Shown in pieces: positions 30,691 to 41,149 of a stretch of 64,000 nucleotides of DNA. The notes below the pieces were generated by a model that ran no database searches, was not told the DNA's origin, and saw only the letters and a program-made list of their open reading frames with translations. The stretch's first letter is position 1. Every line of letters starts with the position of its first letter. The position numbers and the translations under genes are program-made. Source of the stretch: Cryobacterium flavum. Lineage in GTDB: Bacteria; Actinomycetota; Actinomycetes; Actinomycetales; Microbacteriaceae. The stretch covers positions 186,001-250,000 of the forward strand of contig NZ_FNIB01000001.1 in the NCBI RefSeq assembly GCF_900103805.1, read 5' to 3'.

Positions 30691-31647
30691 ATGAGCGAAT
30701 TCAACTCCCTTAATATCGTTATTCTGGCCGGCGGAATCTCCCACGAACGTGATGTTTCGCTGCGCTCGGGGCGACGGGTAGCGGATGCCCTCACGGGCGG
30801 GGGCCACACGGTCACCGTGATCGATCCCGGGGCCAACCTCCTGACCACTCTCACCGAACAAGCCCCCGACGTGATCTGGCCCACCCTGCACGGAGCTACC
30901 GGAGAGGATGGCGCCCTGCTCTCCCTGCTGGAGACCACCGGCATCCCGTTTCTCGGCTCAACTGGGCCCGCCGCCGCCCTGGCCTGGAACAAGGGCACGG
31001 CCAAGGAGCTCGTGCGCCGAGCTGGTTTTGCCACTCCCCCGGCTATCGCCCTCTCCACCGAGACATTTCGGGACCTCGGGGCCACGAGCGTACTTGAGCA
31101 CCTGATCGGCGCAATCGGCCTGCCCCTGGTCGTTAAACCAGCTCAGGGCGGTTCCTCTCAGGGTGTCACGATCGTGCGCACCGCAGCGGACCTGCCCCGT
31201 GCCATGGTCGACGCGTACACCTACGCCAACACCGCCCTCGTTGAGGCCTATATTGACGGCGTTGAGGTTACGGTGGCGGTAATTGACACCGGGACCGGCC
31301 CCACAGCTCTGCCGATCGTTGAAATCGTGCCCGTTGACGGCGTCTACAGTTTCGAGGCACGGTACAACGCCGGCGAGACAGACTTCTACACGCCGGCTCG
31401 CCTTTCCGACGAGGCCTCAGCGGCGGTTTCCGCAACCGCAGTCGCCATTCACACACTGCTGGGCCTCCGCCACCTGAGCCGTATCGACCTCATTGTCGAT
31501 GCCGCAGGTACCGCCTGGTTCCTGGAGGCCAACGTGCTTCCTGGCCTGACGGAAACGTCACTGGTGCCGCAGGCGATCGAGGCCACCAACCAGACCCTGG
31601 GTTCCACCTACTCCGCCCTGGCCACGAACGCCCTGACGGGCCAGTAG
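30691..31647 (+). CDS. ddl: D-alanine--D-alanine ligase
   Basis: An ATP-grasp ligase of 318 residues that makes D-Ala-D-Ala for peptidoglycan. The N-terminal signature GGISHERDVSLRSG is clear. KPAQGGSSQGVT is the ATP-grasp loop and EANVLPGLTETSLVPQ the C-terminal metal/substrate site. It lies beside the parS cluster, as the last gene before the partition locus. A terminal-acceptor variant (D-Ala-D-Lac type) cannot be excluded from sequence but is unlikely. Confidence 0.9.
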   Translation: MSEFNSLNIVILAGGISHERDVSLRSGRRVADALTGGGHTVTVIDPGANLLTTLTEQAPDVIWPTLHGATGEDGALLSLLETTGIPFLGSTGPAAALAWNKGTAKELVRRAGFATPPAIALSTETFRDLGATSVLEHLIGAIGLPLVVKPAQGGSSQGVTIVRTAADLPRAMVDAYTYANTALVEAYIDGVEVTVAVIDTGTGPTALPIVEIVPVDGVYSFEARYNAGETDFYTPARLSDEASAAVSATAVAIHTLLGLRHLSRIDLIVDAAGTAWFLEANVLPGLTETSLVPQAIEATNQTLGSTYSALATNALTGQ

Positions 31648-31653
31648 GCCTTA

Positions 31654-31669
31654 CGTTTCACGTGAAACC
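31654..31669. promoter_or_regulatory. parS: parS site 1
   Basis: The 14-base core GTTTCACGTGAAAC is exact; the outer bases are C and C. It lies seven bases after the ddl stop. Confidence 0.8.
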
Positions 31670-31685
31670 TGCGCGGCCTCAGCGT

Positions 31686-31701
31686 TGTTTCACGTGAAAC
31701 A
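31686..31701. promoter_or_regulatory. parS: parS site 2, perfect
   Basis: Perfect 16-base palindrome TGTTTCACGTGAAACA, the consensus ParB binding site. Confidence 0.93.
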
Positions 31702-31800
31702 CCACGACAGGACTCCCTCAGGCCAGCCAGCGGGAGTGCGACTGCGGTCTCGACGAGCTCGACCGGCGGTCTGTGGGCAATTCATACGGCCACGGGATAC

Positions 31801-31816
31801 TGTTTCACGTGAAACA
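31801..31816. promoter_or_regulatory. parS: parS site 3, perfect
   Basis: Perfect TGTTTCACGTGAAACA, 115 bases from site 2. Confidence 0.93.
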
Positions 31817-31891
31817 CTCCGTTGCAGCTCCCGCGAATTGCTCGCGGGACGGCAATTACGGTCTCGACGAGGCCGACCGACGGGCCGTGGC

Positions 31892-31907
31892 CGTTTCACG
31901 TGAAACA
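31892..31907. promoter_or_regulatory. parS: parS site 4
   Basis: CGTTTCACGTGAAACA: exact core with one outer base changed; 91 bases from site 3. Confidence 0.88.
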
Positions 31908-32006
31908 TCGCGACAGGCGTCCCGCAAACCAGCCAACGGGACGGCGATTACGGTCTCGACGAGCTCGACGGCCGCTGGGTGGGCAATTCACGTGGCCGCG
32001 GGATAC

Positions 32007-32022
32007 TGTTTCACGTGAAACA
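32007..32022. promoter_or_regulatory. parS: parS site 5, perfect
   Basis: Perfect TGTTTCACGTGAAACA, 115 bases from site 4, last site of the tandem array. Confidence 0.93.
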
Positions 32023-32365
32023 TCGCGACAAGATCCCCGCAAACCAGCCCATCGGTAGGGCGATGGACTTCTATACAAGCTCTGCCAACGGTGTGGGCAG
32101 AGTGAATTCAGCAACATAGGGGCGGCGGCGGGTTTTTCGCGCAAGTTGCGAGTTTTGAACGTCTTTCAGCGGACTCGCGCACGCTTTTCGCGAGAAGCCC
32201 CTGAAAGACCTCGATGTCTAAGCGGGGAGCGAATGACCCGTCAACGCCCGCCGCGCCCGTACAAGCGCCATCAAGATCGACCAAGCCATGGACCGCAGTA
32301 AATAGTTCGCCGTCAGCCGTGAACCGTGGGGCGGTTCACAGAAAAAAATGCCCCGCCGCGCGCCA

Positions 32366-32381
32366 TGTTTCACGTGAAACG
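32366..32381. promoter_or_regulatory. parS: parS site 6, just after the parB stop
   Basis: TGTTTCACGTGAAACG, exact core with one outer base changed, 18 bases from the parB stop codon. Confidence 0.88.
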
Positions 32382-32398: not shown

Positions 32399-33349
32399 CT
32401 AGCTCGCGCTAAAGGCCGGTTCGCCGAGAACGGTAAGAATGCGGTTAAGATCGCCAATTGTGGCGAAATCAACTGTGATCTGGCCTTTTCTAGCCCCAAG
32501 ATTGATTTTGACGCGCGTGTCGAGTCGTTCTCCGAGGTGCTCAGCGATTTCATCGAGGTGCCCCTGGCGTCGACCAGGAAGTGGTTTAGCCTTAATCAGT
32601 CTTGGCACGGATGTCGCCGCAGCCTCGGCCGCCCGCACCGAGAGATCCTCTTCGACGATCTTGTCAGCCAAGCGAAGCATGCCAGCCAGGTCACCCACGG
32701 ACAAAATCGCCCGCGCATGGCCAGCCGAGAGCACGCCGGCCGCAACTCGTAGCTGCACCGGTACCGGCAATTTCAGCAGACGCAGGGTGTTGGTGATCTG
32801 CGGCCGCGATCGACCAATTCTGGTCGCCAATTCTTCCTGTGTGATATCGAAGTCAGCGAGCAGCTGCTGGTAAGCGGATGCCTCTTCGAGCGGATTCAGC
32901 TGGGCGCGGTGTAGGTTTTCCAGCAGCGCGTCGCGCAGCATATCGACATCGGCGGTCTCTCGAACGACAGCTGGAATGCTGTCGAGCCCGACCTCTTTGG
33001 TCGCGCGAAGACGACGCTCGCCCATGACGAGTTCGTACTTGCCCGGCTCATCCGCTAATGGCCGCACGACGATCGGTTGCAGAACTCCGACTTCGCGAAT
33101 GCTGTGCACGAGTTCAGCGAGGTCATCCTCGTCGAAAATAGTGCGCGGCTGGGCGCGGTTGGGCACGATGTCCTGCGGGTTCAGGTGGGCCAGACGCGCT
33201 CCGGGCACGGGAACGAGCTCGGGGGAGTCATCCGTTTCACGTGAAACACTACGCGGAAAAAAGACATCAACCGGCCGGGGAGCCGACGCGTCGTCCTGCA
33301 CCGGGATGAGTGCGCCGATACCGCGGCCGAGGCCGGTTCTTTTCGCCAT
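32399..33349 (-). CDS. parB: Chromosome partitioning protein ParB
   Basis: A 316-residue CTP-dependent clamp that loads at parS. The N-terminal ParB/Srx domain has NRAQPRTIFDEDDL and the GERRLRA nucleotide motif; the central helix-turn-helix (ITQEELATRIGRSRPQITN) reads parS; the C-terminus dimerises. Its ATG overlaps the parA stop by one base. The gene itself holds a parS site (33233-33248, encoding VSRET). The N-terminal arm between residues 1 and 45 is variable. Confidence 0.96.
   Translation of the reverse strand: MAKRTGLGRGIGALIPVQDDASAPRPVDVFFPRSVSRETDDSPELVPVPGARLAHLNPQDIVPNRAQPRTIFDEDDLAELVHSIREVGVLQPIVVRPLADEPGKYELVMGERRLRATKEVGLDSIPAVVRETADVDMLRDALLENLHRAQLNPLEEASAYQQLLADFDITQEELATRIGRSRPQITNTLRLLKLPVPVQLRVAAGVLSAGHARAILSVGDLAGMLRLADKIVEEDLSVRAAEAAATSVPRLIKAKPLPGRRQGHLDEIAEHLGERLDTRVKINLGARKGQITVDFATIGDLNRILTVLGEPAFSAS
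33233..33248. promoter_or_regulatory. parS: parS site 7, inside parB
   Basis: CGTTTCACGTGAAACA lies in the parB coding region near its 5' end and encodes the residues VSRET. Confidence 0.88.
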
Positions 33350-34302
33350 TAGTGCTTATCTTTCATTTGGGGCTTATCTTCGGTTCGGGGAGCACCTCGA
33401 TGGGCCATTTCTGCTGCTGCTTCGAGGTAGGAGAGCGATCCTGCGGAGTTGAGGTCGTAACTGACGACGCTCTGACCGTAGCTCGGGGCCTCAGAAACGC
33501 GCACAGAGCGCGGAATAGCGGTATTCAGCACCTCTTTGGGGAAGTGATCGCGTACTTCCTTGGCTACCTGGGTCGCCAGATTGGTACGGCTGTCGTACAT
33601 GGTCAACAGAATCGTTGATACCACGAGGTCGGGGTTCAGGTGTTTCTCGATCAGGGCAATGTTCTTGAGCAGCTGGCTCAGTCCTTCGAGGGCGTAGTAC
33701 TCACACTGAATTGGAATGAGCACCTCGCGGGCCGCGACGAAGGCATTGATGGTGAGCAGCCCCAAAGATGGCGGGCAGTCAATGAAGACGTAGTCGTAGG
33801 GCTCGGCCATCTCGGCCAGGTAGAGGTCCAGTGCCCGGCGCAGGCGTTGCTCGCGTGCGACAAGCGACACCAGTTCAATCTCAGCACCAGCGAGGTGGAT
33901 GGTAGCGGGAACGCAGAACAGTGCACCGAATTCCGGGCTCTTCTGCACGACTTCAGACATGGGCATGTCGTTGATGATGACGTCGTAGACGCTCGGCGTC
34001 TCGGCGCGGTGCTCCACTCCCAGGGCGGTGGAAGCGTTACCCTGCGGGTCCAGGTCGATGACCAGCACGCGGGCTCCCTGCCGCGCGAGGGCGGCGGCAA
34101 GGTTGACGGCGGTCGTTGTCTTGCCGACGCCACCCTTCTGGTTGGAGATCGTCAGCACCCGGGTCTTGTCGGGTTTGGGCAGTTCGCCGGCCGCGATAAC
34201 CTGGCGGCGCCGCGTGAGTTCAGCGATTTCGCGGGCGAGCGGCGTTGTGCCGTCGAACCCTCCCGCCTTGCCCGTGCGCTGATCTTCAGCAGGATGTTTC
34301 AC
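33349..34302 (-). CDS. parA: Chromosome partitioning ATPase ParA
   Basis: A 317-residue ParA/Soj-type ATPase that moves ParB-bound origins. The deviant Walker A KGGVGKTTT follows VLTISNQ at about residue 55; Walker A' and B are VLVIDLDPQGNAS and YVFIDCPPSLG. The start is GTG at 34302, with AAAGG six bases before it. This GTG is part of the CACGTG centre of parS site 8, so ParB binding could directly affect parA transcription or initiation. It is followed by parB. Confidence 0.95.
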   Translation of the reverse strand: MKHPAEDQRTGKAGGFDGTTPLAREIAELTRRRQVIAAGELPKPDKTRVLTISNQKGGVGKTTTAVNLAAALARQGARVLVIDLDPQGNASTALGVEHRAETPSVYDVIINDMPMSEVVQKSPEFGALFCVPATIHLAGAEIELVSLVAREQRLRRALDLYLAEMAEPYDYVFIDCPPSLGLLTINAFVAAREVLIPIQCEYYALEGLSQLLKNIALIEKHLNPDLVVSTILLTMYDSRTNLATQVAKEVRDHFPKEVLNTAIPRSVRVSEAPSYGQSVVSYDLNSAGSLSYLEAAAEMAHRGAPRTEDKPQMKDKH

Positions 34303-34310
34303 GTGAAACC
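34295..34310. promoter_or_regulatory. parS: parS site 8, overlapping the parA start codon
   Basis: TGTTTCACGTGAAACC spans the parA GTG start codon (34300-34302). The exact 14-base core is present. Autoregulation of parAB by ParB is an inference from this position. Confidence 0.88.
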
Positions 34311-38080: not shown

Positions 38081-39499
38081 ATGGCAGACGTAGAAGCGCC
38101 GATAGCTGAAACCTGGCGGTCCGTTCTGACCACGTTGGAATCCGACGCCACGATCACCCCCATGCTCTACGGGTTCCTCAGTCTGGTCGAGCCGAAGGGC
38201 ATCGCCGCCGGTACCTTCTACCTCGAAGTGCCGAACGAGTTCACGGCCAGCATGCTCAATCAGCGGATGCGGGTTCCCCTGCTGACCGCGATGGGTCAGC
38301 TCGACGAAGCCACTGCGGTGTCGACCTTCTATGTGGTCGTCAACCCGGAGCTCGAGCAGGAATCCCTGCGCCCGGTGCAACAGACACTGACCCCACCCGA
38401 TGTCATCACCCCCGCCCCGCCGCAATCGGTATTCGAAGGTGCCGTTCCGGCGCAGCCGCACGAGACCCGACTCAACCCCAAATACAGTTTCGACAACTTT
38501 GTGATCGGCCAGTCCAACCGATTCGCGCACGCGGCTGCCGTGGCCGTGGCCGAAGCTCCGGCGAAGGCCTACAACCCTCTCTTCATCTATGGATCATCGG
38601 GGCTCGGCAAAACTCACCTGCTGCACGCGATCGGTCACTACGCCATGAGTCTGTACCCGGGCATCCGCGTACGTTATGTCAGCTCCGAAGAGTTCACCAA
38701 CGACTTCATTAATTCGATCGCGAACAACCGAGGCTCGGCATTTCAGGCCCGATATCGCAACATCGACATCCTCATGATTGATGACATTCAGTTTCTGCAG
38801 AACAAAGCTGAAACCCAGGAAGCCTTTTTTCACACCTTCAACACGCTCCACGACCATAACAAGCAGGTGGTGATCACGAGCGACCTGCCGCCGAAGCATC
38901 TGACCGGCTTCGAAGACCGCATGCGCAGTCGATTTGAGTGGGGCCTGATCACGGATGTCCAGGCACCCGACCTCGAAACCCGCATCGCTATTCTGCGCAA
39001 GAAGGCCCAGAGCGAGAAGCTGCAGGTTCCCCACGACATTCTCGAGTTCATGGCGTCAAAGGTTTCCTCCAATATTCGCGAGTTGGAAGGAACATTGATT
39101 CGGGTCACCGCCTTTGCGAGCCTCAATCGCACGCCGGTGGACATGGACCTGGTGCAGACGGTGTTGAAAGACCTCATCACTCTGGATGAGGACAACGTCA
39201 TCGCCCCGGTCGACATCATTACGAACACGGCCAACTACTTCAAACTATCCGTCGACGACCTATACGGGTCGAGCCGCTCGCAAGCGATTGCCACTGCTCG
39301 CCAAATCGCCATGTACCTGTGTCGTGAGCTCACCAACCTCTCCCTCCCCAAGATCGGTCAGCTTTTCGGTAACCGGGACCACACCACGGTGATGTACGCG
39401 AATAAGAAGATCAGCGAACTCATGAAGGAGCGTCGGTCGATCTATAACCAAGTGACCGAGCTCACCAATCGCATCAAGCAGGACCACCGATACAAGTAG
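38081..39499 (+). CDS. dnaA: Chromosomal replication initiator DnaA
   Basis: Binds DnaA boxes and opens oriC. 472 residues: domain I about 1-90, a short proline-rich domain II, AAA+ domain III with Walker A GSSGLGKTH (171-179) and Walker B ILMIDDIQF, and DNA-binding domain IV with FGNRDHTTVMYA. Domain II is much shorter than in Streptomyces. The start has a weak leader (TAGGAACAATG). The 3' end is partly duplicated just downstream (39490-39590). Confidence 0.97.
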   Translation: MADVEAPIAETWRSVLTTLESDATITPMLYGFLSLVEPKGIAAGTFYLEVPNEFTASMLNQRMRVPLLTAMGQLDEATAVSTFYVVVNPELEQESLRPVQQTLTPPDVITPAPPQSVFEGAVPAQPHETRLNPKYSFDNFVIGQSNRFAHAAAVAVAEAPAKAYNPLFIYGSSGLGKTHLLHAIGHYAMSLYPGIRVRYVSSEEFTNDFINSIANNRGSAFQARYRNIDILMIDDIQFLQNKAETQEAFFHTFNTLHDHNKQVVITSDLPPKHLTGFEDRMRSRFEWGLITDVQAPDLETRIAILRKKAQSEKLQVPHDILEFMASKVSSNIRELEGTLIRVTAFASLNRTPVDMDLVQTVLKDLITLDEDNVIAPVDIITNTANYFKLSVDDLYGSSRSQAIATARQIAMYLCRELTNLSLPKIGQLFGNRDHTTVMYANKKISELMKERRSIYNQVTELTNRIKQDHRYK

Positions 39500-39590: not shown

Positions 39591-39991
39591 TCGTACGAGT
39601 TCTGACCCGGAGGGGCCCAAATTTTTTTAGTTTTCACACCTGTGGATAACCCTGTGGAATTAACTCACACAACCGGTCGTCGCCTGTAGAAACTCGAGGC
39701 CTGCCTGTAGAAACTTGTAATTACCACGAGTTGCGCTTGCTCAAACGAATGACAAACTTCCACAGCTCGCCCACAACTTACAAGCGTGTAGTTCCCAATG
39801 CCTGAGCGGTTTTCACAGAGTTATCCACAGTTTCCACAACGGTTAAGAAGATTAACAAGAATTCTTTAACCTTCATCCAGCCGACAACCTTGAGAGCCAG
39901 GGCCCTCAGAGCAGCACGGTACTGAATAGACCTGTGACAACAGCTAGCATTGAGGCCCACCCATCCGCCCGTCGAACGCAAGGAATGTTTC
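39500..39991. other. oriC: Replication origin oriC (dnaA-dnaN gap)
   Basis: In actinobacteria the origin usually lies between dnaA and dnaN. Here the 492-base gap has exact DnaA boxes at 39641-39649 (reverse) and 39821-39829 (forward). Near matches are TGTGGAATT 39653, TTTTCACAG 39810, TTTCCACAA 39831 and two TGTAGAAAC. An AT-rich imperfect palindrome at 39841-39871 (GGTTAAGAA...TTCTTTAACC) is a good unwinding element. Gene orientation changes sign here: mostly minus to the left, plus to the right. Confidence 0.85.
39576..39628 (+). terminator. dnaA terminator
   Basis: GGCCCC-A-CCGG (39576-39586) pairs with CCGG-A-GGGGCC (39607-39617), with an inner palindrome in the loop and seven T to 39628. 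It protects the origin from readthrough. Confidence 0.8.
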
Positions 39992-41149
39992 GTGAGATTT
40001 CAGGCCAATCGGGATGTCTTCAGCGAAGCAGTTTCCTTCGCGGTCAAACTTCTGCCCCAACGCACGACCCTGCCGATTCTGAGTGGTGTACTCATCGAGG
40101 CGACAGCAACGGGCTTGATTCTGTCGTCGTTCGACTACGAGGTCTCTGCCCAGACCGAGATCGTCGCCGAAGTTGAAGAGACCGGAAAAGTTCTCGTCTC
40201 CGGCCGGCTCCTCGCCGAAATCGCCAGCCGTCTCCCCAACGCTCCTGTGCGGTTTTCCACGGAAAATTCGCGCATCAAGGTCAGCTGTGGATCGGCCAGC
40301 TTCACCCTGCTGTCCATGCCTGTTGAGGAATATCCGAGCATTCCCGTGGTCACCACCCAGTCCGGCCTCGTACCGGCTGAGGAATTTGCTGCGGCTGTCG
40401 CTCAGGTTGCCGTCGCTGCCTCGCGGGACGATGTCACCCCAGTCATCACCGGGGTGCAACTCGAGGTCACCGAAAATAGCCTCAGCCTCGTAGCCACCGA
40501 CCGGTACCGTGTCGCGGTTCGGGAAATCGACTGGGATCCGGGCAGCAACACCGCCCCCAATGAAGCAGGAACAATCACCGCACTCGTGCCGGCCCGTACC
40601 CTGCAGGAGGTCGGTAAGACTTTCGGTCACAGCGGAACCATTTCGGTTTCTATCACCAACAGTGACGACCGCGAACTGATCGCGTTCACCGCGAACAAGA
40701 AGACCGTCACGTCGCTGCTGATCAAGGGTAATTTTCCTCCCGTTCGTCGCCTGTTCCCGGCCACCGTTGACAACTACGCGGTGATGAACACGGCGGACCT
40801 GATCGAAGCCACCCGCCGTGTGCAGCTCGTGTTGGAACGTGAAGCCGCGCTGCGCTTCACTTTCGACGCCTCCGGCGTCACCCTCGAAGCCGTAGGATCC
40901 GAGCAGGCCCAGGCTTCGGAAACCATCGATGCCATTCTCTCCGGCACCGAGACCGTCGTCTCACTCAAGCCGCAGTTTCTCCTGGACGGGCTCAGCGCCG
41001 TGCACTCCGAATTCGTGCGCATCTCGTTCACGAAAACGGAAAACCCGAATAAGCCCGGGCCGGTATTGATCACCAGCCAGACTTCGCGCGAGCAGGCCGG
41101 AGTGGACAGCTACAAATACCTGCTGCAGCCCAACCTGCTCCTGCGCTAA
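39992..41149 (+). CDS. dnaN: DNA polymerase III sliding clamp (beta subunit)
   Basis: 385 residues, the usual clamp length, with three repeated clamp domains and a start VRFQANRDVFSEAVSFAVKL. It tethers polymerase and partners. GTG at 39992 is chosen because AAGGA lies about nine bases before it and it matches family N-termini; the upstream in-frame ATG at 39950 would add 14 unrelated residues. recF follows six bases after the stop. Confidence 0.96.
   Translation: MRFQANRDVFSEAVSFAVKLLPQRTTLPILSGVLIEATATGLILSSFDYEVSAQTEIVAEVEETGKVLVSGRLLAEIASRLPNAPVRFSTENSRIKVSCGSASFTLLSMPVEEYPSIPVVTTQSGLVPAEEFAAAVAQVAVAASRDDVTPVITGVQLEVTENSLSLVATDRYRVAVREIDWDPGSNTAPNEAGTITALVPARTLQEVGKTFGHSGTISVSITNSDDRELIAFTANKKTVTSLLIKGNFPPVRRLFPATVDNYAVMNTADLIEATRRVQLVLEREAALRFTFDASGVTLEAVGSEQAQASETIDAILSGTETVVSLKPQFLLDGLSAVHSEFVRISFTKTENPNKPGPVLITSQTSREQAGVDSYKYLLQPNLLLR

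What the first reader, a model, noticed from the sequence alone, without database searches (positions are those of the whole stretch)
31654..32022. The centromere is a tandem repeat: parS sites inside 115/91/115-base units
Four parS palindromes are spaced 115, 91 and 115 bases, and the DNA between them is repeated too (GGTCTCGACGAG, GTGGGCAATTCA, GGGATACTG before; ATCGCGACAGG, CCCGCAAACCAGCC after). parS sites are normally embedded in unrelated sequence; an array that has grown by unit duplication is unusual. The inter-parS blocks might be passive or might bind another factor.
Basis: seen in the sequence. Interest (0 to 1): 0.62.

Follow-up and report, generated by a model that had tools for sequence, protein, structure and literature searches.

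The report
parS centromere enlarged by tandem duplication
In this Cryobacterium (a genus of cold-loving bacteria), part of the chromosome's centromere appears to have grown by copying a roughly 100-base unit that holds one ParB-binding site, and related species carry from none to seven such units, so a bacterial centromere can change size somewhat like repeat DNA.

Summary
The gap between parB and a D-Ala-D-Ala-ligase-like gene (ddl), about 6 kb from dnaA, carries six perfect parS sites; four are spaced 115/91/115. The blocks between them are homologous: 80% over 97 nt for the outer pair, 91% over 33 nt for the middle block; 0 of 1000 shuffles reach either score. All eight exact parS of the genome are in this region.

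It is a ParABS centromere partly built by tandem duplication. The unit recurs in 7 of 17 closely related Cryobacterium gaps (window included), 1 to 7 copies each; strain Y11 has a 130-bp array. The window and its two nearest relatives have 4, 2 and 0 units; whether by gain or loss is not settled. Homologous inter-parS blocks occur in 8 of 35 Cryobacterium loci and 0 of 22 other loci.

parS stays intact while spacers drift. Tandem parS repeats are classic on plasmid F; I met no report of a chromosomal case in the listings searched. No binding was tested.

The parts
31655..31668 (.). parS 1 (14-bp palindrome), 7 nt after the ddl stop codon
   Evidence: exact match
31687..31700 (.). parS 2, belongs to unit B
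31701..31801 (.). inter-parS block B; 80% identical to D over 97 columns
31731..31764 (-). REP-like core element in block B
   Evidence: model R1 (built partly from this copy), 32.4 bits
31802..31815 (.). parS 3, belongs to unit C
31816..31892 (.). inter-parS block C (shorter); 91% identical to D over 33 columns
31845..31878 (-). REP-like core element in block C
   Evidence: model R1 (built partly from this copy), 29.9 bits
31893..31906 (.). parS 4, belongs to unit D
31907..32007 (.). inter-parS block D
31937..31969 (-). REP-like core element in block D
   Evidence: model R1 (built partly from this copy), 36.8 bits
32008..32021 (.). parS 5, belongs to unit E
32022..32121 (.). block E: degenerate unit; 81% identical to D over 43 columns next to parS; lies in a stretch that aligns with L044 over 397 columns; no core found at up to 4 mismatches
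32119..32245 (.). separate dispersed hairpin element between E and parS 6; copies elsewhere in this and related genomes
32367..32380 (.). parS 6, 18 nt after the parB stop codon (parB is on the - strand)
32399..33349 (-). parB
   Evidence: Pfam ParB_N, HTH_ParB, ParB_C
33234..33247 (.). parS 7 inside parB; of the 16 other close-relative loci only L044 and L045 have it at this place
33349..34302 (-). parA
   Evidence: Pfam AAA_31, CbiA
34296..34309 (.). parS 8 across the parA start
30691..31647 (+). D-Ala-D-Ala-ligase-like gene (ddl), convergent with parB
   Evidence: Pfam Dala_Dala_lig_C and _N

Best explanation
This is the origin-proximal centromere of a normal chromosomal ParABS system whose parS number was raised by tandem duplication of a roughly 91-115-bp unit. 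ParB dimers load onto each parS and slide into the flanking DNA; several parS in one short non-coding gap give more loading points and redundancy (inferred from what is known of ParB elsewhere). The gap between convergent genes tolerates length changes; copies of parS and of a REP-like core inside the units give short direct identities on which slippage or unequal exchange can add or remove units. After copying, selection keeps the 14-bp parS while the spacer drifts. Shown here: homology of the blocks, copy-number differences among relatives, intact parS against diverged spacers, and the dispersed nature of the core. Inferred: ParB binding, the recombination route, the direction of change in each lineage, and the benefit of more parS.
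For: Block homology beyond all shuffles. ParB and ParA confirmed by Pfam; DnaA and DNA polymerase III beta genes 6-8 kb away. The parB-ddl gap holds at least two parS (up to one mismatch) in 40 of 40 gaps analysed. Of 47 non-overlapping parS flanks in 17 close gaps, 21 resemble the unit clearly: window 4, L044 2, L048 1, L051 2, L052 (Y11) 7, L057 3, L060 2; a 22nd (L047, score 24 against a shuffle maximum of 22) I do not count (the reference units were two of the window and one of Y11). Y11 has eight parS-like sites exactly 130 bp apart, the first with one mismatch, and four identical spacers. In the supported trio window/L044/L045 (SH-aLRT 99, quick tree) copies are 4/2/0. Of 81 parS-like sites within three mismatches in the 17 gaps, 75 are exact; all six in the window gap are, although B and D differ by 20%. 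Between-species identity in 16 aligned units: parS 1.00, core 0.77 (used for picking), post-core 0.71, middle 0.45, pre-core 0.33, chance 0.27. The core is dispersed: exact pattern in 49 of 57 genomes, up to 591 copies, one control match in all.
Against: No within-species comparison was made (the collections hold one genome per species), so change is seen only between species, and gain in the window against loss in L044 is not decided: L044's second unit matches window C, D and B about equally (77% each). The number of identical copies in Y11 comes from a scaffold assembly and may be wrong. Ten of the 17 gaps have several parS without clear units, so duplication is one route only. Units were found through their parS, so decayed units could be missed; only two plus-strand cores of 21 lack a parS at the usual distance. 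The post-core segment was not used for picking units yet is better conserved (0.71) than its surroundings, which leaves room for a constraint on the block. ParB binding was not tested.
Confidence: 0.73

Rival explanations
1. Composite centromere: the spacer core binds a second protein, and the unit (core, about 45 nt, parS) is amplified because both sites are needed together.
For: Core and post-core are conserved between seven species well above neighbouring spacer. In the 17 close gaps, 19 of 21 plus-strand cores (up to 4 mismatches) lie 41-46 nt before a parS; the exceptions are in L047 (5 nt) and L057 (110 nt), and two more cores are on the minus strand (L051, L052).
Against: The core is a dispersed repeat, and full-length copies at 30 bits or more lie away from the cluster in three of eight genomes searched; nine dispersed copies read had no parS within three mismatches within 300 nt. 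Ten of 17 close gaps have parS clusters without clear units, and two units (window E, L044's first) have no recognisable core. In L074 and L076 (C. frigoriphilum, C. melibiosiphilum) the array cores stand at other places, two in each at 6 nt from parS, though one in L074 is at 42 nt. A fixed distance also follows from common descent.
Confidence: 0.12
2. REP-driven amplification with parS as passenger: REP-like repeats in this genus form tandem arrays in many places, and in this gap some arrays happened to include parS; the extra parS have no benefit.
For: Tandem core arrays without parS exist, e.g. 81-bp period in the same gap of L074, evenly spaced cores in G048 and G042. Three of the window's four units carry a core.
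Against: parS is intact in every window unit while spacers are about 20% diverged, which neutral drift would seldom give (0.9 to the power 56, roughly 0.003: my own arithmetic, assuming about 10% change per copy in four copies; biased because units were found through parS).
Confidence: 0.15

Closest known systems
parS (sopC) of plasmid F
   Same: Centromere made of tandem repeats with ParB-binding inverted repeats: twelve 43-bp repeats containing ten 16-bp motifs (passage of PMC6238139).
   Different: On a plasmid, with its own ParB and short regular 43-bp units. Here: chromosomal, universal-type parS, 91-130-bp units, diverged spacers, REP-like core.
parS cluster of Myxococcus xanthus
   Same: Many chromosomal parS in a compact cluster near parAB: 22 in about 3 kb (passages of PMC3899335); [quoted passage not shown]
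   Different: The passages I saw do not say whether the DNA between the sites is repeated, and I did not examine that genome. Its sites are reported in forward, reverse and palindromic forms; those here are identical palindromes.
parS sites of Corynebacterium glutamicum
   Same: Actinobacterial chromosomal ParABS, ten parS in one cluster; a single parS suffices and the authors think the number improves robustness (passages of PMC7083940).
   Different: Spread over 35 kb, nine of ten in intergenic regions; here six sites lie in 0.73 kb, four of them in homologous units.
REP/BIME-type dispersed repeats
   Same: The core of the inter-parS blocks is a short, partly palindromic repeat found in both orientations, singly, in inverted pairs and in tandem runs.
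   Different: Here it sits inside a parS array at a fixed distance from parS. The label REP-like is mine, from form and distribution; no curated family was matched or searched for.

Membership tests
Chromosomal ParABS centromere (parS) | Exact or near-exact universal parS palindrome | tested here: met
   Eight exact 14-mers, all in this region; reversed-pattern control 0. That this 14-mer is the parS core is recalled.
Chromosomal ParABS centromere (parS) | parA and parB next to the sites | tested here: met
   Pfam domains
Chromosomal ParABS centromere (parS) | Close to the replication origin | tested here: met
   DnaA gene at 38081-39499, DNA polymerase III beta at 39950-41149; oriC itself not mapped
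Chromosomal ParABS centromere (parS) | ParB binds the sites and spreads | not testable with these tools
   Needs ChIP-seq or in vitro binding
Tandem-repeat centromere (as in plasmid F) | Binding sites lie in head-to-tail copies of one unit | tested here: met
   Blocks B, C, D and part of E homologous in the same orientation; spacings unequal, 115/91/115
Tandem-repeat centromere (as in plasmid F) | Whole centromere made of repeats | tested here: not met
   Of the six parS in the gap, the four in units are 377, 492, 583 and 698; the flanks of the other two were too short to test. The two in parB and parA were not compared.
REP-like dispersed repeat (core of the blocks) | Many copies in the genome, both strands, outside the locus | tested here: met
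   7 exact copies in this genome (one of them in block B), up to 591 in others of 57; full-length copies elsewhere in related genomes
REP-like dispersed repeat (core of the blocks) | Intergenic location | tested here: inconclusive
   Open frames cover all nine dispersed copies read in this G+C-rich DNA, so frame alone does not decide
REP-like dispersed repeat (core of the blocks) | Associated REP transposase (RAYT) | not tested
   No search made

The most novel reading that the evidence does not exclude
Cryobacterium chromosomes have satellite-like centromeres: parS-bearing units repeatedly expand, diverge and contract within one gap, and array size tunes ParB loading under selection.
Probability: 0.2. 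Interest if true: 0.66.

Novelty: new variant of a known kind. Interest (0 to 1): 0.43.

Why it matters
How chromosomes come to have different numbers of parS is little explained. Here is a genus with a fixed location, a recognisable unit, and 0 to 7 copies in related species, so gain and loss of bacterial centromere sites can be followed and its effect on segregation measured. It also gives a natural series for testing how parS number and spacing affect ParB loading.

Tried and rejected
Chance similarity: rejected. Array as an assembly error in the window: unlikely, because copies differ by about 20%. A conserved hairpin in each unit: the window's three core units fold with a stem, but the later Y11 copies fold only weakly (-14.3), so I dropped a structural role. 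A parS-specific 35-nt motif: the pattern CGAGACCGNNATCGCC looked array-linked in Y11 (6 of 7 hits), though only 1 of 5 hits in the window genome was in the array; the model search then found full-length copies elsewhere, so the idea was given up. A known RNA: Rfam gave one match far below its gathering score (16.5 against 44 bits). Tandem Repeats Finder did not report the array.

Limits. The threshold (score at least 44 over at least 45 columns) was set after seeing and leaves out shorter or partial cases: L051 (35 columns, 89%), L044's two units, and pieces of L077 that include the stretch before its first parS (142 columns, 73%). In many of the 22 other loci the DNA between parS is probably coding, so they are an imperfect control. 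Flank scores include overlapping flanks that share a parS; one search repeats the count on 47 non-overlapping flanks. The tree is a quick search on two short proteins; the array state needs at least 6 changes on 39 rows. and results include sequences from which R1 was built, and the match list was cut off. Alignments used 16 units (4 of Y11's 7).

Papers: passages only of PMC3899335, PMC3778016, PMC7083940 and PMC6238139; other papers only as search listings; the survey of Livny and others 2007 was not held and was met only as cited in the first two. That chromosomal arrays of homologous parS units are not in print rests on the listings alone (searches listed 20 of 69 and 20 of 443 papers).

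Full report
What is there. Eight exact parS lie between 31655 and 34309, and these are all in the 4.04-Mb assembly. Six are in the 751-nt gap between the convergent genes parB (32399-33349, -) and ddl (30691-31647, +); dnaA begins at 38081. Four of the six are spaced 115, 91 and 115. With parS removed, the blocks between them are alike far beyond chance: B/D 80% over 97 columns, C/D 91% over 33, B/C 79% over 47, and part of a fourth block E 81% over 43 with D; 0 of 1000 shuffles reached these scores. C and E are not alike.

Where it comes from. ParB relatives place the window in Cryobacterium (80 loci kept of 123 found). A ddl gene follows parB in 38 of 39 Cryobacterium loci; no match was found in the other, L093, whose locus ends 2.3 kb after parB. 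All 40 gaps analysed (window, 38 Cryobacterium, Glaciibacter) hold at least two parS with up to one mismatch. Exact parS number 3 to 10 per genome in 56 of 57 genomes of the genus, and none in one (G060).

The unit in relatives. In 17 close gaps, 21 of 47 parS flanks tested clearly resemble the window's unit: window 4, L044 2, L048 1, L051 2, L052 7, L057 3, L060 2; a 22nd, in L047, is marginal. In L052, Cryobacterium sp. Y11, the unit is 130 bp, with eight parS-like sites in exact register (the first has one mismatch), and the last four spacers are identical. The window, L044 and L045 form a supported trio (SH-aLRT 99, quick tree) with 4, 2 and 0 units. Window E lies in a 397-column match with L044 that takes in L044's first unit; L044's second unit matches window C, D and B about equally well (77% each). 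So numbers differ between nearest relatives, but gain in the window or loss in L044 cannot be told.

Other repeats. With a threshold of score 44 over at least 45 columns, 8 of 35 Cryobacterium loci with two or more inter-parS blocks have homologous blocks (window, L052, L057, L066, L069, L072, L074, L076), against 0 of 22 other loci. Units differ in length, from about 106 bp in L076 to about 440-530 bp in L072, and the loci fall in separate parts of the tree, with at least six changes of state. Between the clades the blocks match mainly through the REP-like core. Duplication of parS-bearing DNA therefore seems to have happened more than once; this is inference.

What the blocks contain. Of 21 plus-strand cores (GGTCGAGCTTGCCGAGACC, up to 4 mismatches) in the 17 gaps, 19 lie 41 to 46 nt before a parS in the parB-to-ddl direction; two do not, and two further cores are on the other strand. 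The core is a dispersed repeat: 49 of 57 genomes have exact copies of its degenerate pattern, up to 591; this genome has seven, one of them in block B; one control match in all. A model of core plus post-core (R1) finds full-length copies at 30 bits or more away from the parS cluster in three of eight genomes searched (G013, G014, G015), and weaker or partial ones in all eight (list cut off); nine dispersed copies were read and none has parS within three mismatches within 300 nt. Conservation of the core is therefore not proof of a second centromere-binding protein. Against this reading, the post-core part, not used in picking, is 71% identical between species while neighbouring DNA is 33-45% (chance 27%); constraint on the block or exchange with other copies is possible.

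Selection on parS. Of 81 sites within three mismatches of parS in the 17 gaps, 75 are exact. In the window's array parS is unchanged in all copies while spacers have drifted by about 20%. Selection on parS rather than on the whole block is the simplest reading, with the caution that units were found through their parS.

How it works (inferred). ParB binds each parS, closes as a CTP-dependent clamp and slides outwards, and ParA and SMC act on the complex; these steps are known from other bacteria (recalled) and were not tested. In C. glutamicum one parS is enough and the authors think the higher number improves robustness (passages of PMC7083940). A convergent, non-coding gap near the origin can lengthen freely, and direct repeats of parS and core offer sites for slippage or unequal exchange. 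Extra parS are then kept.

Known or new. Tandem centromere repeats are classic on plasmid F (passage of PMC6238139), and dense chromosomal parS clusters are known in M. xanthus (passages). I met no description of chromosomal parS arrays built of homologous units, nor of Cryobacterium parS, in the search listings. I rate it a new variant of a known kind: real and useful, not mechanistically foreign.

Noticed in passing
Rfam gave no match to it.
   Followed up: partly
window 31655-31700 and ddl ends of related gaps: parS pairs or runs 26-51 nt apart are common: 21 pairs in 16 of 40 gaps, in 12 of them at the ddl end, the last parS 3-42 nt from the ddl stop. In L049, L055, L056 and L115 three or four sites follow one another; their spacers are alike beyond shuffles only in L115 (0 of 1000) and L055 (2 of 1000).
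   Followed up: partly
window 33234-33247: A parS inside the parB coding sequence (reads VSRET); at this position also in L044 and L045 but not in the other 14 close relatives.
   Followed up: no
L074, about 1240-1860 nt after parB: An 81-bp-period array of paired REP-like cores without parS in the same parB-ddl gap of C. frigoriphilum.
   Followed up: no
genus-wide (G004, G048, G020, G008 and others): REP-like core copy number differs enormously between Cryobacterium species, from 0 to 591 exact copies per genome.
   Followed up: partly
G060: A 97%-complete Cryobacterium genome with no exact parS at all: missing contig or changed parS.
   Followed up: no
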